Source of the DNA: Natrinema hispanicum
GTDB taxonomy: Archaea; Halobacteriota; Halobacteria; Halobacteriales; Natrialbaceae
DNA length: 64,000 nt
Direction of reading: 5' to 3'
Assembly (NCBI RefSeq): GCF_900111485.1
Contig: NZ_FOIC01000003.1
Coordinates: forward strand, 1 to 64,000
Below, in pieces: positions 16,298 to 29,587 of the stretch. Below the pieces are notes generated by a model that was not told where the DNA came from, made no database searches, and worked only from the letters and a program-made list of their open reading frames with translations. How positions within the stretch are numbered: position 1 is the stretch's first letter; the number at the start of each line of letters is the position of its first letter. The position numbers and the translations under genes are program-made.

Positions 16298-19200
16298 TCA
16301 GTCGATCGTCTCCGCACGACCGGGAGCGTGCTCGTCCGGCCCGCAGCCAAGCGACCGATGCGGACAGCGTCGGCAGTGCTCGCCCGGTGTCGTCTCGTGA
16401 AACGACGGCTCGTCGACTGCCGCGAGCGTCTCGCGGACCGCGTCCCACGACGGGAGCGCGTCGCGCTCGAACAGGTCGACACGAGGGCCGTCGACGTCAC
16501 CGACGTAGACGTAGCCGGCTGCCGAGATCGGGTCGTCGAACCGGTCCGCACAGGCACGTAGGTAGAGCGCAATCTGGACGGCGTCGTCGGGCGCGATCCG
16601 TTCTGTGGTCGCCTTGTAGTCGAGGAGCGCCAGCCCACCGTCGGGACGTCGCCGGATCGAGTCGACGTACCCGACCACGTCCCCCGTCACGCCGACGACA
16701 TCCTCGAGCGAGAAAGGAAGCTCAGCAGCCAGTGGCTCCCAGTCGGCGACCGGGCGATCGATATCGGGTGCGCTCGCCTCGAAGTAGCGGTCGATACAGG
16801 CGAGGACGGCCTCGCGGTGAGTGAGCAAATCGCGTGCGGTGAGTTGTCGAATCGCGGCCTCGCGCCACGCCTCGCGAGTGTGGTACTCGCGATGGAAGGC
16901 CTCTTCGGCGACGTCGTGGAAGACGGTGCCGACGATTCGTGACGCTGGGTCGTCGGTCGCTGGGACCGGTCCGCCGTTCGTCTCGGTCACTTCGCTGCCG
17001 GCCGCCGATGTGGGATGTGGATCGTCGATCGCCCGAACGACGTGATCCAGGTAGTGTTTCCGCGGACAGGTCTCATGGGTGTCGATCGCGGAGTAGCTGT
17101 GGCGCATCGCGACCGGGAGTTCCGTCGTGGACGCGAGCGTCTCGACCGGGAAGCGGACGGTCTCGGTCGTCAACGCAGAGAGTTGCCGGCTGCCCGGAAC
17201 CTGAATCTCGCCCCCCGGACCAGCACTGTCGCGGCCGTCCACGGGCCGACCGTAGCTCGCCGCGTCGGCCGCCGGCAACAACTGTCCGTCCCGGAGCAAT
17301 CGTCCCAGCCGGTGGACGGTCTCGATCGCCTCGCGCGTCTCGAGGGGTTCGACGGGCCGGTCACCGTAGTCAGCATAGTAGGTGATCGTCCCCGGACTCT
17401 CACTGGCCGAGGCGGCGATCTCGTCGGTTCGATCGACGACCGTCTCGGGGTAGATCTCCCGCACTCGCTCGAAGCTCTCGGTCAGCGACGCCCACAGATC
17501 CATCCGCCGGCCGGCCACCGACCACTCGATGTCGCTTGCCAGACAGGCGTCGGCAGTCGACACCGCGAGTTCGGTCTCGTCGCCGTCGTAGGCATACTCC
17601 GAGCCGAACAGGAACAGGTGGTTCTCGGCGCGGGTAAGCGCGACGTGGAGCACCCGCCACTCCTCACCGACCGTCTCGGCTGCCAGATCCGCACAGAGCG
17701 GGGAGTCAACGTCGTCATCGAGCGCGGCGGTCAACAGCCGGTGGCGGGCCCGCTCGACGTAATCGCCGTCGACACACCACTCCTCATCCGAGAGGTACGG
17801 AACCAAGACCGTATCGAACTCGAGACCCTTGGCCTGATGGACCGTCATCACGTCGACGCTGTCGGCGGATTGCGTTCCGCGGGTTCGATCGCTGTCGCCG
17901 CCCTGAAGTGTCTCGGCAAGCGCGTCGACGAATTCAGTCGATAGCGACTGGATGACCCCGTCGGTGTCGTAGACCTCGACGAACCGCTCGATGCGATCGA
18001 ACTCGGCTCGCTCCTCGCTCGTACAGAACCACTCGATTCGGGTCAGATCACGGAACCGGCGCAGAAAGCCCGCCAGCGGGTAGACGTCCCGAAATCGCTC
18101 GAGTTGCTCAAGATGATCGCGAACCCGCTCGAGCCGATCGGGCTGTGTGAGCCGCTCGGCGTCGATGGCCATCACGGCGTCGTGCAGCGATCCCGGCTGT
18201 CCGTGCAGCGTCGCAAGATCGTCTTCCGTGAACCGGTAGCGGGCGAGCAACACGCGCCGGAGGTGGGCATCGGCATCCAGGTCGACGAGGACCCGGAGAT
18301 ACGACAGCACCGTTTGCAGTCCGGGCGAAACGTCGCCACGGGGCGAGCCGGAGATTTCGTAGGGGAGCTGTTGGTCACGGAGGGCGTCCGCGATCGCCTG
18401 GGCGTGGCGATTCGTCCGGACGATAACCGCGATATCGCCCAGCTCGCGCTGTGGGACGTTCGCGGCCGCACCATTGAGCAGCCGCGAGACCGTCGTCGCG
18501 ACCCCCGCAGCCGTCGATCCTGGGATCGCGTCGCTTTCGACCTTGACGACGCGGTCCGGCGGATCAGCTTCGGCGTAGGTGCCTCGCGTTCGGCCGTCCT
18601 CGCGCAGCGTCTTCGATGACTGCGGCCCATAGTCACAGGCGTTCGTCAGATCGAGTATCTCCTGTCGCGATCGGAAGTTACGCTCGAGCTCGATCGCCTC
18701 GTGGTCGTCGTAAGCGTCAGCCAGTCGATCGAGTCCCTCGCGGTCGGTGCCACGCCAGCCGTAGATCGCCTGGTCCTTGTCGCCGATCGCGAGCAGGTCC
18801 GGCCGATCGGGGCCGTCCGTGAGTGCAGTGAGCAGGGAAAACTGCGTCTCGTCGGTGTCCTGAAACTCGTCGCAGTAGACCTGCGTCCACTGGTCCGTGA
18901 TCTCGTCCGTGATCGCCGTGTCATCGAGCAGGCAAGTTGCCGTCCGAACGAGCTCGTCGAAATCGAGCGCGTCCTCTGCGTCGAGAGCGTCGTGGTAGTC
19001 CGCATAGACATCGGTATAGTGACGAGCCAGCCGAAGGAACTCGACGTAGTGTTTCAGCCGCCCGAACGGCGTCTGTTCGATTCGACTCGTCGCTGTCCCC
19101 CAGATCTGGTTGCCGAACAACGCCCGCGGCAGGTGTTTCGTAGTGGGGTCGTCGAGCGAGAGCGTCTCGATCGCGTTCGTCACGCACTGCTGGAGCACCC

Positions 19201-20002
19201 GGAGATACCGATCGACATCACGAACCAGCTCGGCCTCGCGGAAGGCCGCCGGCGCTTCCGCGATCTTCTCGCGACAGTACGAGACGAGTTTCCCGTAGTC
19301 GATCAGCGACTCGCGGGCCTGCTCGACGTGTTCCTCCCGGTTGAAATACCGCAGCGCTTCGTTGTCGAACGACAGGGTCTCGTCGGCGCGCCGCTCGAGC
19401 CAAAGGACGAACTCGTGACAGAGCTCGAGGGTCCGCACCGGCGGCAGCGCCGCCTGCAGCGCATCGGGCGTGACGTTCTCCTGACTCATCGTCCCGATGA
19501 ACTGGTCGACCGCAGCCGTGAGATCGGCCGGTGAACCGTCGTGTTTCGACGCAGCTGCGAAGCCGTAGTCGTTGTCCGCAAGCAGGCGGCCAACGAGCCG
19601 TCGCCGTTTGCGCTCGGTGACGACCTCGAACTCGGGCGAGTAGCCCAGATAGTAGGCGTACTCTCGGACGAGCCGATAACAGAACGAGTGGTAGGTGTAG
19701 ACGTCGATCGCCGCCGCTGCGTCGGGGTCGAGCCGTTCGGCGACCGCCGCGCGGATGCTCGCAGCGGCCTCGTTCGCGAAGGTCAACACGAGCACGTCGT
19801 CGGGCTCGACGTCACCTCGCTCGATGGCGCGCTCGAGCCGAACGAGCATCGTCGTCGTCTTCCCGGTTCCGGCACCGGCGTCGACGGACGTACAGGCTGT
19901 GCGGCTCTCGATGACTGCGTTCTGGTTGCCCTTCGGCTCGATCTCGTCCGCGGGTGCGAGCGTGTCGCGCTCGCGGTCGGTTCGGCGCGGTCTCTCAGCC
20001 AT
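16298..20002 (-). CDS. AddA-like UvrD-family helicase fused to a PD-(D/E)XK nuclease
   Basis: This 1234-residue protein is a superfamily 1 helicase with a C-terminal RecB-type nuclease. Helicase motifs in order are Walker A DAGAGTGKTT (41-50), the DEFQDTDE Walker B, GDKDQAIYGWRG, LERNFRS, VMTVHQAKGLEFD and HVALTRAENHLF. The nuclease has GTVFHDVAEEAFH, then GYVDSIRRR and LALLDYKATT (the D...DxK core). Cysteines flank it: one in HETCPRKHY and three in HCRRCPHRSLGC, as in AddB and Cas4 Fe-S nucleases. The predicted role is DNA-end resection in recombination repair. ATG 20002 is preferred over the TTG at 20005. It overlaps the previous gene by 8 bases. Confidence 0.92.
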   Translation of the reverse strand: MAERPRRTDRERDTLAPADEIEPKGNQNAVIESRTACTSVDAGAGTGKTTTMLVRLERAIERGDVEPDDVLVLTFANEAAASIRAAVAERLDPDAAAAIDVYTYHSFCYRLVREYAYYLGYSPEFEVVTERKRRRLVGRLLADNDYGFAAASKHDGSPADLTAAVDQFIGTMSQENVTPDALQAALPPVRTLELCHEFVLWLERRADETLSFDNEALRYFNREEHVEQARESLIDYGKLVSYCREKIAEAPAAFREAELVRDVDRYLRVLQQCVTNAIETLSLDDPTTKHLPRALFGNQIWGTATSRIEQTPFGRLKHYVEFLRLARHYTDVYADYHDALDAEDALDFDELVRTATCLLDDTAITDEITDQWTQVYCDEFQDTDETQFSLLTALTDGPDRPDLLAIGDKDQAIYGWRGTDREGLDRLADAYDDHEAIELERNFRSRQEILDLTNACDYGPQSSKTLREDGRTRGTYAEADPPDRVVKVESDAIPGSTAAGVATTVSRLLNGAAANVPQRELGDIAVIVRTNRHAQAIADALRDQQLPYEISGSPRGDVSPGLQTVLSYLRVLVDLDADAHLRRVLLARYRFTEDDLATLHGQPGSLHDAVMAIDAERLTQPDRLERVRDHLEQLERFRDVYPLAGFLRRFRDLTRIEWFCTSEERAEFDRIERFVEVYDTDGVIQSLSTEFVDALAETLQGGDSDRTRGTQSADSVDVMTVHQAKGLEFDTVLVPYLSDEEWCVDGDYVERARHRLLTAALDDDVDSPLCADLAAETVGEEWRVLHVALTRAENHLFLFGSEYAYDGDETELAVSTADACLASDIEWSVAGRRMDLWASLTESFERVREIYPETVVDRTDEIAASASESPGTITYYADYGDRPVEPLETREAIETVHRLGRLLRDGQLLPAADAASYGRPVDGRDSAGPGGEIQVPGSRQLSALTTETVRFPVETLASTTELPVAMRHSYSAIDTHETCPRKHYLDHVVRAIDDPHPTSAAGSEVTETNGGPVPATDDPASRIVGTVFHDVAEEAFHREYHTREAWREAAIRQLTARDLLTHREAVLACIDRYFEASAPDIDRPVADWEPLAAELPFSLEDVVGVTGDVVGYVDSIRRRPDGGLALLDYKATTERIAPDDAVQIALYLRACADRFDDPISAAGYVYVGDVDGPRVDLFERDALPSWDAVRETLAAVDEPSFHETTPGEHCRRCPHRSLGCGPDEHAPGRAETID

Positions 20003-21035
20003 CAAAGCTCACCTCCGTTGCGATGTGGTCCTGACAGCAGACCGTATACTCACAGTCAGGACAGGCGTGCTCTGCGATCCGATCCCAGCTGTCGGCTGGA
20101 TCGAACGATCCCGAACACAGGTCCGCAACGACCGCCGCCAGCCGGCTATCGACCGTCTCGTTTCGGTGCTCGTGGGTCATGCCGAACGTGTGGTGGTCGA
20201 CGTAGACCTCGGTCAGATCGGCGACCTCGAGACCCGTCTCGACCGCGTCCCGAACCCAGTTGACCGTCAGTCCCGACCTGTCGGCAAGCGGGATCTGGAG
20301 GTATCGACAGGTTCGATCCTCGAGTCCGAGCCGATCACGAAGCCCGCGAAGGCCGTCAAGGACGACGGCAGTCTCGAGGAGCGCACCGACGGGACCGGGC
20401 TCGAACACGTCCGACTCGTCGTCGAAGTGGTCGGTAAAGCGGTCGGCAACGTCGCCCTCCCAGTCGGATCGATAGCGAAGCCAGCCAAGCGACGCAAGCG
20501 TCGGGACGAACCGGACGCCGACGAGCGACGAGCCGTCGCCGGAGACGTAGTCGACCGTCGCATCGATCGTTACCGCGTCCGCATCGCCTGCAGCGTTCAG
20601 TTCCGGAAGCGAAACCGTCCTCGAGAGCGCCAATTCAGGCCCGATCAGTTCGTCGCGGGCCGCCGTGGCGTCGAGCTGTGAGATCCCCGCGGCGTGGTCC
20701 GTTCCAACCTTCGTGACGTAGGCAGCGAGCGTCGCCTCAAGGACCCGCCGTTCGTGGCGGCGCTGGGCGACAGAGTGAAAGCGCTCGTCGTACTCGTCCC
20801 AGCGCGTCGCAAGCCGGTCACGGGCGACCTGCTCGAGTGCGTCAGGGTCTGTCTCCCCATGTCGGAGCGCATCACAGATCGCGGCTCTGAGGAGCGCGAT
20901 CCGGTCGCCGACCGTGTCATCGTCGCCCATCTCGAGGTCGTGGCGGTGGGCGAACTCGTACCGGCGCGGACAGTGAAGATAGGTTCGGAGACCGTCGACG
21001 GTGAGCGAATCGCCTCGGGTCGCCGTGTCAGTCAT
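19995..21035 (-). CDS. Cas4/RecB-like protein with Fe-S cysteines but a degenerate nuclease core
   Basis: The 346-residue middle gene of the helicase operon begins with LRTYLHCPRRYEFAH (Cys22) and ends with ACPDCEYTVCCQD (Cys325, 328 and 333/334). That is the cysteine layout of Fe-S-containing PD-(D/E)XK nucleases. Where the catalytic strand pair should read G-x-x-D ... (D/E)xK, this protein has DATVDYVSG then LVGVRFVPTL, so the second acidic residue and the lysine appear to be missing. It may therefore bind DNA or hold the complex together rather than cut. It overlaps both neighbours by 8 bases, so all three should be made in fixed ratio. The start ATG 21035 removes an unlikely 85-residue extension. 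Confidence 0.85.
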   Translation of the reverse strand: MTDTATRGDSLTVDGLRTYLHCPRRYEFAHRHDLEMGDDDTVGDRIALLRAAICDALRHGETDPDALEQVARDRLATRWDEYDERFHSVAQRRHERRVLEATLAAYVTKVGTDHAAGISQLDATAARDELIGPELALSRTVSLPELNAAGDADAVTIDATVDYVSGDGSSLVGVRFVPTLASLGWLRYRSDWEGDVADRFTDHFDDESDVFEPGPVGALLETAVVLDGLRGLRDRLGLEDRTCRYLQIPLADRSGLTVNWVRDAVETGLEVADLTEVYVDHHTFGMTHEHRNETVDSRLAAVVADLCSGSFDPADSWDRIAEHACPDCEYTVCCQDHIATEVSFDG

Positions 21036-23256
21036 CGCGGACCACCTCACCCGCGGCGAACTCGAACTGCGACCGGACCGCATCAGCGAGGTCGGCGTCG
21101 ACATCACCCTCCTCGAGGACGACCGCGATCTCCTCGAACAGCGCTTCTGTCTCGCCGAGATCGGCCTCGCCGCCGGTACTGGCCTTCCGGAGCACCCGCT
21201 CGAGTTCGCCCCGTGGCTGGGCGAGCAGTGCCTCGAGGGCGTTCGTCTCACCGTGGATCGCCACACCGGCGCTCGCGTCGACGTCCGCAAGCGTGAGTCC
21301 GGGCGTCGCGTCGATCAGTTGCAGATAGCGGGATTCGTCGTAGCTCCGGCGCAGACCACCGGCACCGCGTTCGTAGGAACAACAGTAGAGGGCCCGCTCG
21401 GCAGCGCGGGCACCGAGTGCAAGCTGGCGGCGGGAGCGCTGGGCATGGTACGTCTCGAAGGGGTCGCCGACATCGGCGGTGTCGACTGTCGCGAAGGTGT
21501 CGGTGATCGCCTCGAGGGAGGGATCGGTGACAGCCGGATAGGCAGTCATCTGCCGAAGCCACGCCTGCGGGAACAGTTGCGTAAGAAACTGCTCGCCAGG
21601 ATAGGTCTCGTCGATCAGATCGAGCAGGAACACCGCGTTCCGTGAGTCGTATTTCAGGTCGTCGATGGCACAGACGGTGACGCCACCGGTCGGCGGCCGC
21701 GTCTCGACTGCGTGGACGTAGGGTGCGTCGTACCGGATCGTCCGTCGAAGCATCCGGCGCAATCCCTGCCAGTCCGGCCCGACGAGGTCGGTCTCCTCGA
21801 CGAAGTCGGCGATTTCGAGTACCCGACGGATGCCCTCGTACTGCTCGCGGGCGTCGACCCATTCCTCCTCGCGGGCGATCCGGTCTTTCAGGTCGGTGCG
21901 GCGGATCCAGCGCTCGAGCGAGCGCCGAACGCTCGCGCCGGCAGTGTCCGCGAGCAGGGCGGGCGAAAAGTCGGGGACACGAGCCCGAAGGCGGTCGATC
22001 GACGCGGCTCGCGGATCGCTCGCGCCTTGCGTCGTGGCAGATGCGAGTCGCTCGAGGGAGTCTCCGTCACGGTCCCGTTCGCACTGGCACGTGACGACAG
22101 CGTAGAGTTCGTTTACAGCGGGGTCTTCGGCCAGTGAGGGGGTCCCGATCGTGGCGGTCGGAACGCCGGCGTCACGGAGTCGCCGTCTGATCTCGGGAAC
22201 TCGTTCGATCCGCGGGGCGGCGACGGCGAACGCGTCGTAGGACCAGCCGTGGCGGTCGCGAAGCGACTGGATCTCGGTGGCGACCGCCCGGACCTGTTCG
22301 CGGGCGGTTTCGGTGCGGATGCGTCGTGCACATCCCCTTGGATCGCTGTCGGCGGTTGTGGGTTGCTCCGGCGGCTCACCGGTCGCCAGAAACCGCACGA
22401 TCGACTGGTGTGGCGGCCTGGCATCCGTTGTGCGCACTGTCTCGGGCTCGAGCGACTCGACTGTAAGCCCCGCGGCAGCTGCGATTTCGTCGACCGAACC
22501 GGGTTCGACGCGCGTCCGCTCGACGCTGACGTGGCGTTCGCCGAGACAGACCAGCTCGGCGTCGCGCGTGAGCGCAGCGAGGTACCGGCGGTCGAGCTGA
22601 CGGTATTCCTCGAACTCGACGGCGAGGATGGCATCGAAGGAGGCTGTCACGCGCGTCCGAAGGCCATCGGCGTCAGCCTCGAGCAAGTCGACTGCCTGCG
22701 GGATCACGTCTGCCCGCTCGACGTAGCCCCGATCGTCGAGTTCCGCGTGGAAGCGGTCGTTCATCGCGTACAGAAAGGCCAGGCAGTCGTGGGGATCGTC
22801 GAGGTCGTCGAGGCGGAGCCGTTGACGGGTCGCCGCGAGCAGCAGTTGCCCCACGTCGCGCGTAAAGCTCTCGTGGGCGGCCGCCCGCTCGAGATAGTCC
22901 GGAACCGAACGGCTCGCCCCGTCGATCACAAGCGAAATGAGTTCGATCCGTTCCTCGTACTCGAGGCGGTCCAGCGTTGGATCGTACTCCTCGATTGTCT
23001 TCGAGGCGTGTTCCGGCAGCGACTCGATACGGGGCGAGCGAGGCCCCCCGTCGGCCCGCGCGAGATCAGCGTCGGCCAGCGCCTCGGTCAGCGACTCGAG
23101 GCCCGTCGGGTGCCGTTTCAAGACTAACACGTTGCGCGGGCCATACTCGTCGGCGAGCGCAGCGTACTCGGAAGCGACGGCCGCGAAGACGTCGCTCCCG
23201 GGTGCAGGCGCGGGGAGGAGCTTGCAGGTACCTTCGAGCGTGGGCGGCATAGTCAT
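21028..23256 (-). CDS. AddB-like inactivated helicase subunit
   Basis: This is a 742-residue protein at the head of the three-gene operon. It has no Walker A or DExQ box. Two regions nonetheless look like the UvrD scaffold kept in AddB: an EQVRAVATEIQSLRDRHG ... DAFAVAAPR block near residue 330, and a motif V-like VTVCAIDDLKYD ... FLLDLIDETYPGEQFL near 580. In bacteria AddB is the partner of AddA in end resection, so I infer the same partnership. A TATA (tatttaaa, 23289-23295) lies upstream of ATG 23256; ATG 23250 is equally possible. The assignment rests on context and weak similarity. A structure comparison would settle it. Confidence 0.75.
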   Translation of the reverse strand: MTMPPTLEGTCKLLPAPAPGSDVFAAVASEYAALADEYGPRNVLVLKRHPTGLESLTEALADADLARADGGPRSPRIESLPEHASKTIEEYDPTLDRLEYEERIELISLVIDGASRSVPDYLERAAAHESFTRDVGQLLLAATRQRLRLDDLDDPHDCLAFLYAMNDRFHAELDDRGYVERADVIPQAVDLLEADADGLRTRVTASFDAILAVEFEEYRQLDRRYLAALTRDAELVCLGERHVSVERTRVEPGSVDEIAAAAGLTVESLEPETVRTTDARPPHQSIVRFLATGEPPEQPTTADSDPRGCARRIRTETAREQVRAVATEIQSLRDRHGWSYDAFAVAAPRIERVPEIRRRLRDAGVPTATIGTPSLAEDPAVNELYAVVTCQCERDRDGDSLERLASATTQGASDPRAASIDRLRARVPDFSPALLADTAGASVRRSLERWIRRTDLKDRIAREEEWVDAREQYEGIRRVLEIADFVEETDLVGPDWQGLRRMLRRTIRYDAPYVHAVETRPPTGGVTVCAIDDLKYDSRNAVFLLDLIDETYPGEQFLTQLFPQAWLRQMTAYPAVTDPSLEAITDTFATVDTADVGDPFETYHAQRSRRQLALGARAAERALYCCSYERGAGGLRRSYDESRYLQLIDATPGLTLADVDASAGVAIHGETNALEALLAQPRGELERVLRKASTGGEADLGETEALFEEIAVVLEEGDVDADLADAVRSQFEFAAGEVVRDD

Positions 23257-23288: not shown

Positions 23289-23295
23289 TATTTAA
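23289..23295 (-). promoter_or_regulatory. TATA box for the helicase-nuclease operon
   Basis: tatttaaa in a GC-rich setting lies about 33-38 bases before the first ATG of the AddB-like gene. It is the only clear promoter for the three overlapping genes. Confidence 0.55.
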
Positions 23296-23320
23296 ATGTA
23301 GGCACACTCGAGTACTGGTG

Positions 23321-26623: not shown

Positions 26624-29587
26624 TCAATCGTCGTCCGTCGGTGCCGTCACGGGCTCGACCCGTTCGCCACGCGGCCCCTCGAGATCGACCTTCGGCAGCA
26701 GATCGCGCAGGTAGCGGCCGGTGTGAGAATCCTCGCGGCGCGCGACCGTCTCCGGCGTGCCGGTGGCAACGACCTCACCGCCGTGCTCGCCGCCCTCGGG
26801 GCCGAGGTCGATGATGTGGTCGGCGTTTTTCACGAGGTCGAGTTCGTGTTCGATGACGACGACGGTGTTGCCGTTGTCGGTCAGCCGGTGGAGCACGTCG
26901 ATGAGTTTGCGCTCGTCGGCCGAGTGCAGGCCCGTGGTGGGCTCGTCGAGCAGGTAGAGCGTCTCGCCCGAATCCTTCTTGCCCAGTTCCTCGGCGAGTT
27001 TGATCCGCTGGGCCTCACCGCCCGAGAGCGTCGTCGAGGGCTGGCCGAGTTTCATGTAATCGAGGCCGACGTCTTTCAGCAACTGGAGTCGGCGACGGAT
27101 CTGGCTCGAGGACTCGAAGAAGTCGTACGCCTCCTCGACGGACATCTCGAGGACATCGGCGATGGTCTTGCTCTTGTAGGTGACATCGAGCGTGGCGTCG
27201 TTGTAGCGAGCGCCGCCACACTCCTCACAGGGGACGTACACGTCGGAGAGGAAGTTCATGTCGATCTTGACGGTCCCCTGGCCACCGCACTCCTCACAGC
27301 GCCCGCCCTTGACGTTAAACGAGAAGCGCCCCTTCTCGTAGCCGCGCTGTTTCGCGAGTTTGGTCTCGGCGAACAGTTCGCGGACGTAGTCGAAGACGTT
27401 GGTGTAGGTCGCGGGGTTTGACCGGGGCGTGCGGCCGATCGGCGACTGGTCGATCAGGCGGACGGTTTCGATCTCCGCGAGTCCCTCGAGATCGTCGTGG
27501 TCGCCCGGGATCACGCTCGTGTTGTCGTTCATCTCACGAGCGAGGCCCTTGTAGAGCACTTCGTGCATGAGGGTGGATTTCCCGGAGCCCGAGACACCCG
27601 TAATGGCGGTAAAGCAGCCAAGCGGGATGTCCACGTTGAGATCAGCCAGGTTGTGCTGGCGCGCGCCGCGGATCGTCAGCGCGCCGTCGGGATCGCGCCG
27701 TTCGTCAGGGACGGGAATCTGCTTGCGCCCGGAGAGGTAGTCACCGGTGATCGACTCCTCGGTTGCCTTGACCTCCTCGACGGGGCCGTTGGCGACGACC
27801 TCGCCGCCGCGCTTGCCCGGACCGGGCCCCATGTCGATGACGTTGTCCGCGCGGCGCATCGTCTCCTCGTCGTGTTCGACGACCAGCAGGGTATTCCCGA
27901 GGTCGCGCAGTTCACAGAGCGTATCGAGCAGGCGGTCGTTATCCCGCTGGTGGAGCCCGATCGAGGGCTCGTCGAGCACATAGAGGACGCCGACCAGCCC
28001 GGAGCCGATCTGGGTCGCGAGCCGGATGCGCTGGCTCTCGCCACCAGAGAGCGTCGAGGCCTCGCGATCGAGCGTGAGGTACTCGAGGCCGACCTCGGTC
28101 ATGAAACCGAGTCGCGCGCGGATCTCTTTCAGGATCTCCTCGGCGATCACCTTCTCGCGCTCGGTAAGGTCGGCTTCCATCGCTTCGAAGTGCGCCAAGG
28201 CGTCGCCGATGCTCATCGCGTTGATCTCCGTGATCGCCGTGTCGTCGACCAGCACCGCCCGACTCGCGGGTTTCAGGCGCGTGCCGTCACAGGCCGGACA
28301 CTCCGTGACCGACATGTAGCCCTCGATGTGTTCGCGCGTCGAGTCCGAGTCAGTCTCGATGTACCGGCGCTCCAAGTTCGGAATAACGCCCTCGAAGCGC
28401 TTTTTCTTCCGGCGGGTCCCGTTTTTCGTCTGTCGCTTGAACAGCACCTGCTCGTCGGTGCCGTAGAGAAATGCCTGCTGAATCTCGTCGTCGAGTTCCG
28501 CAAAGGGCGTCTCGAGCGAGACATCGAAGTGTGCGGCGACGGCGTCAAGCCGAGTCCGATAGTACGACCGGTTGTAGCTCCACGGCTCGAAGACGTGTTT
28601 CAGGGGCTTGGACTCGTCTTGGATGACGAGGTCCTCGTCGACTTCCTTGGTCTCACCCAGTCCTTCACACTCGGGACAGGCACCGTGGGGCGAGTTAAAA
28701 GAGAACGAGCGGGTCTCGATCTCGGGTACGTCGATCCCGCAGTGGGTACAGGCGAGATCCTTCGAGAACTCGACGACGAAGCGGTCGTCTTCCTCGACCT
28801 CGTCCCCGAGCGCGCCCGTCCGGCGGGCTTCTGCGCCGAGATCTTCGGCGACTTCCTCGGAAGCATCAGGAAGAATGACCTTCAAGACGCCGTCGGCCTC
28901 GTCGAGTGCCGTCTCGACGCTGTCGATGATCCGCGGGCGATCCTCGACCGAGACCTTCACGCGGTCGACGATCACGTCGATCGTGTGATCGAAGTTCTCG
29001 TCCAAATCCGGGTCCTCGAGCGTCAGATCGTGTTCCTCGCCGTCGATCTCGACGCGGGCATATCCTTCTGAGACGAGTTCCGCGAACAGGTCCTCGAAGG
29101 CTCCTTTCTGGTCGCGGACCACGGGTGCCGCGAGTTTGGCCTTGGTTCCCTCGGGGAGCTCGAGGATGCGCTCGACCATGTTCTGGGCCGATTGCTCGCC
29201 GACCTCGCGACCACACTCGGGGCAGTGGGGTGTGCCGACGCGAGCGTAGAGCAAGCGCAGGTAGTCGTGCAGTTCGGTGACCGTCCCGACGGTCGAGCGG
29301 GGATTGTTCGCGGCGTTTTTCTGGTCGATCGAGATCGCCGGCGAGAGGCCCTCGACAGTCTCGACCTGCGGTTTGTCCATCTGTCCGAGGAAGTTCCGCG
29401 CATACGCCGAGAGGCTCTCGATGTACCGGCGCTGCCCTTCGGCATAGACCGTCTCGAACGCCAGCGAGGACTTGCCCGACCCCGAGAGGCCAGTGACGAC
29501 AGTGAACTCCTCGCGTGGGATCGTCACGTCGATGTCCTTGAGGTTGTGTTCCTCCGCCCCGCGAACGTCGATGGTGTCCTTGCTCAT
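26624..29587 (-). CDS. uvrA: Excinuclease ABC subunit A
   Basis: UvrA finds bulky DNA damage and loads UvrB in nucleotide excision repair. The 987-residue protein has both ATPase sites: Walker A GLSGSGKS at 33-40 and GVSGSGKST near 660. The two signature regions are [14 protein letters not shown] and [14 protein letters not shown], and the two Walker B sites are LYVLDEPS and [11 protein letters not shown]. Zinc-binding pairs CPEC, CTHC...CPEC and CEEC...CEEC are present. The length is normal. uvrB and uvrC are not in the window. A 524-codon frame on the opposite strand is a composition shadow. Confidence 0.97.

What the first reader, a model, noticed from the sequence alone, without database searches (positions are those of the whole stretch)
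16298..23256. Three-gene AddAB-like helicase-nuclease operon in an archaeon
An AddA-like helicase-nuclease, a Cas4/RecB-like Fe-S protein and a large AddB-like protein without ATPase motifs overlap by 8 bases each, with one promoter. Bacterial AddAB uses two subunits, each ending in a nuclease domain. Here the second nuclease-like domain seems to be a separate polypeptide. Archaea are usually described as using HerA-NurA with Mre11-Rad50 for end resection, so this would be an additional or alternative route, or a defence function. I know no experimental study of it, but my recall is limited.
Basis: partly seen in the sequence, partly recalled or inferred. Interest (0 to 1): 0.75.

Follow-up and report, generated by a model that had tools for sequence, protein, structure and literature searches.

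The report
Split AddAB-like helicase-nuclease in haloarchaea
A salt-loving archaeon carries a three-gene version of the bacterial DNA-end-chewing machine AddAB in which one subunit has been cut into two proteins and the second cutting domain has probably gone dead, while relatives that keep that domain intact often sit in one operon with an Argonaute defence gene.

Summary
Three genes (AddB-N 21028-23256, Fe-S protein 19995-21035, AddA 16298-20002, minus strand) overlap by exactly 8 nt behind one conserved promoter. The order holds in all 75 named relatives whose contig reaches gene 3, all haloarchaea.

The 742-aa protein is AddB-like: its best solved match, by profile and by fold, is B. subtilis AddB. 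Methanogen relatives carry a fused two-gene addB-addA form colinear with these three genes, so addB was split.

Two corrections. First, the separate 'nuclease' is probably inactive here: it keeps all four Fe-S cysteines and one Asp but has lost the rest of the PD-(D/E)XK site. None of 50 sequences in the window's lineage keep that site; all 26 in the sister lineage do. The only intact nuclease is on AddA, as in RecBCD. Second, NurA/HerA-like genes are also present, so this is an additional route.

Unexpectedly, the intact sister lineage is often in one operon with Argonaute and a PLD protein (APAP defence), while the window's lineage is chromosomal and stable in Natrialbaceae.

Best reading: a diverged AddAB-type DNA-end processor converging on a one-nuclease, RecBCD-like design. 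Activity, polarity and role are untested.

The parts
21028..23256 (-). gene 1 (P0003, 742 aa): AddB N-terminal, helicase-like subunit without Walker A
   Evidence: profile best PDB hit AddB 3u44_B E 5.6e-9; AF2 pLDDT 82.5, pTM 0.82; Foldseek top AddB 4cei_B E 9.4e-22
19995..21035 (-). gene 2 (P0002, 346 aa): separate AddB C-terminal Fe-S nuclease-like subunit; C22, C325, C328, C334 and D162 kept, DYK replaced by R175-F176-V177, QxxxY replaced by E221...V225
   Evidence: PDDEXK_1 E 3.2e-6; alignment and motif table; AF2 pLDDT 86.6; dN/dS 0.24-0.32
16298..20002 (-). gene 3 (P0001, 1234 aa): AddA-like SF1A helicase with C-terminal PD-(D/E)XK nuclease; D1114, D1128, K1130, Q1143, Y1147 intact and four invariant Cys (979, 1210, 1213, 1220)
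   Evidence: Pfam, invariant columns in 24 relatives, PDB profile search, hhalign to methanogen AddA E 7e-54
21028..21035 (-). 8-nt start/stop overlap of genes 1 and 2 (ATGACTGA)
   Evidence: sequence; conserved in relatives
19995..20002 (-). 8-nt start/stop overlap of genes 2 and 3
   Evidence: sequence; conserved in relatives
23289..23296 (-). TATA-like promoter element TTTAAATA about 40 nt before gene 1
   Evidence: 37 of 44 relatives; 0 of 44 and 0 of 43 before genes 2 and 3

Best explanation
The operon encodes an AddAB-type multi-subunit helicase-nuclease for DNA ends whose addB gene has been split into a helicase-dead scaffold/scanner subunit (gene 1) and a small Fe-S subunit (gene 2), followed by addA (gene 3). 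Shown by sequence: the operon, its conservation, the AddB-like sequence and predicted fold of gene 1, the intact motor and nuclease motifs of gene 3, and the loss of catalytic residues with retention of the Fe-S cysteines in gene 2. Inferred: the three proteins form one complex; AddA unwinds from a double-strand end; the Fe-S subunit helps bind the end as AddB's Fe-S domain does; and a single nuclease (AddA's) does all cutting, as in RecBCD. Most likely role in this lineage: a chromosomal, vertically inherited genome-maintenance enzyme that processes or degrades linear DNA ends, additional to HerA-NurA-like proteins.
For: Conserved three-gene order and single promoter. AddB match by profile, fold and alignment to a fused methanogen AddB: gene 1 to AddB 17-340, E 3e-9; gene 2 to AddB 704-753, E 1e-6. 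AddA alignment. Active-site table: sister lineage HDDKQY 26/26, window lineage 0/50, lineages A+B one clade at SH-aLRT 99. Purifying selection on gene 2, dN/dS 0.24-0.32. 17 of 20 sampled genomes of the window's family carry the system, all but one with the window's own type. uvrA within 10 kb in 17 of 45 close relatives. Own genome lacks Piwi.
Against: No complex could be predicted and no activity is known. Foldseek for gene 2 gives only weak hits (best E 5e-3, RecE; then AddA nuclease and Cas4). AddA of this family carries its own Fe-S-type cysteines, unlike the two methanogen AddAs read here, so it is not a plain AddA. If AddAB geometry holds, AddA's nuclease cuts the 3'-terminated strand (PMC4824097), and loss of the AddB nuclease would not give a recombinogenic 3' overhang; that speaks for pure degradation or a changed geometry. 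The uvrA link holds in a minority of loci.
Confidence: 0.7

Rival explanations
1. The window's operon is itself a stand-alone anti-virus/anti-plasmid exonuclease, degrading linear foreign DNA rather than resecting breaks, retained from a defence-linked ancestor.
For: The sister lineage sits in Piwi-PLD operons with a strong pAgo match, is associated with Piwi across genomes (8 of 23 against 3 of 123, p 1.4e-5) and occurs on plasmids. Loss of the AddB-side nuclease removes the strand cut expected to leave a 3' overhang.
Against: Window lineage: chromosomal, stable across Natrialbaceae, no Piwi association (1 of 21 genomes, p 1), no defence genes among the neighbours scanned (folate synthesis, TPP enzyme, CBS, UvrA).
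Confidence: 0.3
2. Gene 2 is still an active nuclease that uses a rearranged metal site, so the enzyme keeps two nucleases like AddAB.
For: D162 and the Fe-S cysteines are invariant in all relatives and the protein is under purifying selection; PD-(D/E)XK enzymes are known to shift catalytic residues (established knowledge).
Against: Five of six motif positions are lost and the replacing residues vary (R, Q, K, N, S, G at the D position), while the sister lineage keeps all six in 26 of 26.
Confidence: 0.12
3. Unrelated neighbours: a UvrD helicase, a Cas4-like protein and an unrelated large protein that share an operon without forming an AddAB-type complex.
For: Public annotation of relatives calls them only 'DNA helicase UvrD', 'PD-(D/E)XK nuclease family protein' and 'ATP-dependent DNA helicase'.
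Against: Invariant order and overlaps, AddB-like fold of gene 1, colinearity with fused methanogen addB-addA.
Confidence: 0.04

Closest known systems
AddAB/RexAB (Bacillus subtilis AddA, AddB; PDB 3u44, 4cei)
   Same: UvrD-like motor with C-terminal nuclease paired with a helicase-dead partner; Fe-S nuclease-like domain belonging to the AddB side; AddB part encoded before AddA
   Different: addB split into two genes; AddB-side nuclease site lost in this lineage; extra cysteine cluster on AddA; archaeal
Methanogen AddAB (loci L169, L170, same phylum)
   Same: colinear genes; gene 1 aligns with AddB N-terminus and gene 2 with the start of AddB's nuclease domain
   Different: AddB fused (1026 and 1049 aa) with intact DYK motif; AddA without C-terminal Cys cluster
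RecBCD (E. coli)
   Same: one active nuclease, partner with inactivated nuclease-like domain (RecC; PMC1185551)
   Different: no RecD-like second motor in the operon; dead domain is a separate Fe-S protein; profile match to RecC not significant
APAP system (haloarchaeal long-A pAgo plus AgaP PLD protein; PMC11442185)
   Same: the intact-nuclease sister lineage lies directly downstream of Piwi-PLD genes in ten loci
   Different: window copy has no Piwi or PLD; the APAP paper notes only 'a helicase-encoding gene' near some operons and did not test it
HerA-NurA / Mre11-Rad50
   Same: proposed DNA-end processing role in archaea
   Different: unrelated proteins; NurA/HerA-like genes coexist in this genome

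Membership tests
AddAB | AddA: SF1A UvrD-like helicase with intact motor motifs and C-terminal RecB-type nuclease | tested here: met
AddAB | AddB: UvrD-like fold without functional motor motifs | tested here: met
   no Walker A in aligned N-termini of relatives; fold AddB-like; profile hit AddB
AddAB | AddB carries its nuclease domain on the same polypeptide | tested here: not met
   separate gene in every spanning relative
AddAB | two active nuclease domains | tested here: not met
   by motif only: window lineage 0/50, sister lineage 26/26
AddAB | Fe-S cluster cysteines in the AddB nuclease domain | tested here: met
   C22, C325, C328, C334 invariant
AddAB | Chi-regulated processing to a 3' overhang | not testable with these tools
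   needs biochemistry
RecBCD | RecD-like second helicase | tested here: not met
   no further gene in the conserved operon; the rest of the genome was not searched for RecD
RecBCD | single active nuclease with inactivated nuclease-like domain on the partner | tested here: met
   by sequence motifs only
Cas4 | RecB-like Fe-S nuclease with intact active site | tested here: not met
   active site lost in gene 2; no PADLOC match for window gene 2
APAP defence system | long-A pAgo plus PLD protein in the operon | tested here: not met
   window's genome has no Piwi; met only in the sister lineage

The most novel reading that the evidence does not exclude
Haloarchaea hold one split-AddAB family that followed two paths. 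The lineage with two active nucleases is a core part of a five-gene Argonaute-PLD-AddAB defence operon, where the helicase-nuclease opens or fragments invader DNA and may supply guides to Argonaute. The other lineage, the window's, lost the second nuclease and became a stable chromosomal DNA-end processor, an independent replay of the proposed AddAB-to-RecBCD transition.
Probability: 0.35. Interest if true: 0.82.

Novelty: new variant of a known kind. Interest (0 to 1): 0.62.

Why it matters
For Haloferax volcanii the processing of broken DNA ends is described mainly as the work of Mre11-Rad50 (PMC7776575). A widespread, unnamed AddAB-type enzyme in other haloarchaea is a new candidate. Rigden (PMC1185551) proposed that RecBCD passed through an AddAB-like stage before the RecC nuclease died; this family has living members on both sides of such a step, with the nuclease on its own gene, so the step can be tested by swapping one small subunit. 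The Argonaute-linked sister lineage offers an identity for the ancillary helicase suspected of helping haloarchaeal Argonaute immunity (PMC11442185).

Tried and rejected
Defence annotation of the window genes: PADLOC gives only generic UvrD matches (GajB, a DRT helicase) to AddA and none to genes 1 and 2. TIGR03676 (aRF1) and Herpes_US8A hits to gene 1 lie far below their cut-offs and were treated as noise. Phage records: no match to gene 1. A phylogeny against bacterial AddA/AddB could not be built because the genome tool takes no bacterial centre; the tree with methanogen and other outgroups has very long branches, so the root was not used beyond the supported split of lineages A+B and C. 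The L174 pair of the same genome was tested as a relative of gene 1 and rejected (hhalign probability 3). RecC as closest relative rejected (hhalign probability 1). Literature searches for haloarchaeal AddAB, Natrinema AddA and archaeal AddAB found no study of this operon, in an open-access library only.

Full report
OBSERVATION. The window lies in a haloarchaeon close to Natrinema hispanicum (96-97% protein identity). On the minus strand three genes run 23256-21028 (742 aa), 21035-19995 (346 aa) and 20002-16298 (1234 aa), overlapping by exactly 8 nt. A haloarchaeal TATA-like box TTTAAATA lies at 23289-23296. In 37 of 44 close relatives such a box sits in the same region before gene 1, and in none before genes 2 or 3. 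Of 146 sampled Halobacteriales genomes 42 have gene 1. Gene order is the same in the 40 relatives read from these genomes, mostly with -8 or -4 nt overlaps, and in 75 of 75 named loci whose contig reaches gene 3.

WHAT THE PARTS ARE. Gene 3 is a UvrD-type helicase with a C-terminal PDDEXK_1 nuclease. Walker and DEFQDTD residues, the nuclease residues and four C-terminal-domain cysteines are invariant in 24 relatives. Its profile aligns with B. subtilis AddA in one stretch, 21-820, and with a methanogen AddA at E 7e-54. Plain UvrD/PcrA chains score higher over the shared motor, so its exact place among UvrD, AddA and AdnAB is not settled. Gene 1 has no Pfam family. The profile of 64 relatives finds AddB first in the PDB, E 5.6e-9, and the AlphaFold model (pLDDT 82.5, pTM 0.82) finds AddB first, E 9e-22, then UvrD, AdnAB and RecB. 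TM-scores of 0.56-0.58 and high rmsd mean that domain folds rather than the whole arrangement are matched. Gene 2 has a weak PDDEXK_1 match and a confident model (pLDDT 86.6) whose weak best matches are RecE, AddA nuclease and Cas4.

SPLIT OF addB. Outside haloarchaea, in the same phylum, loci L169 and L170 hold a two-gene operon: a 1026- or 1049-aa AddB with C-terminal DYKT nuclease and cysteines, then AddA. Gene 1 aligns with residues 17-340 of that AddB and gene 2 with residues 704-753, the start of the nuclease domain; against L170 gene 2's match is not significant. The three haloarchaeal genes are therefore colinear with addB-addA, with addB cut in two. The direction (fission rather than fusion) is inferred from AddB being fused in bacteria and in these relatives.

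A DEAD SECOND NUCLEASE. Six motif positions (H; D; D and K of DYK; Q and Y of QxxxY) were read in 76 relatives plus the window. All 26 of the divergent lineage C keep HDDKQY. None of the 50 readable sequences of lineages A and B, the window included, keep it; they keep only the first Asp (D162 in the window). Lineages A and B form one clade (SH-aLRT 99) against C. The four cysteines are invariant in all and gene 2 evolves under constraint, dN/dS 0.24-0.32, against 0.10-0.22 for its partners. So gene 2 here is best read as a Fe-S, DNA-binding pseudo-nuclease. In B. subtilis AddAB, AddA cuts the 3'-terminated strand and AddB the 5'-terminated strand (PMC4824097). The window enzyme should therefore either use one nuclease for both strands, like RecBCD, or be mainly degradative.

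SURROUNDINGS AND RELATIVES. In Natrialbaceae the operon is chromosomal and near-constant (17 of 20 genomes, one of them, G071, with a type only 46% identical). Neighbours are ordinary genes (a Mur-ligase/pterin-binding fusion, TPP enzyme, CBS protein) and uvrA, which lies within 10 kb in 17 of 45 relatives. Lineage C is scattered over many families and is found on plasmids. In ten lineage C loci the three genes follow directly on Piwi and PLD genes with a divergent AAA-DUF4143 gene (L069, L073, L075, L076, L077, L140, L145, L149, L151, L155). The Piwi protein is a strong pAgo match. Across 146 genomes Piwi is found in 8 of 23 genomes with the divergent type and 3 of 123 others (Fisher p 1.4e-5), and shows no link with the window's type. 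Related genomes are counted separately, so p overstates independence, and the divergent set includes one locus (L059) with a degenerate gene 2. Piwi-PLD is the known APAP defence system; its authors mention only a neighbouring helicase gene (PMC11442185).

OTHER END-PROCESSING GENES. NurA (PF09376) is over the cut-off in 129 of 146 genomes and in Haloferax volcanii, though a review says HerA and NurA are absent there (PMC7776575). In the window's genome two NurA hits lie within about 4 kb of HerA-like hits (C40 and C60). The operon is thus an addition. Mre11-Rad50 was not searched here.

LIMITS. No complex could be modelled, no bacterial phylogeny built, no activity tested. Recall of literature is limited to an open-access library.

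Noticed in passing
L145:3162-16385 and L069, L073, L075, L076, L077, L140, L149, L151, L155: Five-gene run Piwi - PLD - AddB-N - Fe-S nuclease - AddA with a divergent AAA-DUF4143 gene: an Argonaute-linked version of this operon with an intact second nuclease.
   Followed up: partly
L174:3785-9246 (G000:C73:23784-29245): Same genome carries a second AddAB-like pair, not detectably related to gene 1: an 875-aa PDDEXK_1 protein and a 945-aa UvrD-PDDEXK protein overlapping by 4 nt on a 40-kb contig.
   Followed up: partly
G000:C60:119078-123889 and G000:C40:66756-69006: NurA-family genes near HerA-like (DUF87) genes; PF09376 also matches Haloferax volcanii over cut-off although a review says NurA/HerA are absent there.
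   Followed up: partly
L172:6595-9333 (G000:C54): 912-aa Dna2-like helicase-nuclease (Dna2, PDDEXK_1, AAA_11/AAA_12 domains): a further candidate end-processing enzyme in the same genome.
   Followed up: no
window 26624-29587: uvrA lies about 3 kb from the operon; it is within 10 kb in 17 of 45 close relatives.
   Followed up: partly
L054, L055, L056, L057, L058, L059: Intermediate lineages with differently degraded gene 2 active sites (for example DYR or VRL in place of DYK), which may record steps of nuclease loss.
   Followed up: no
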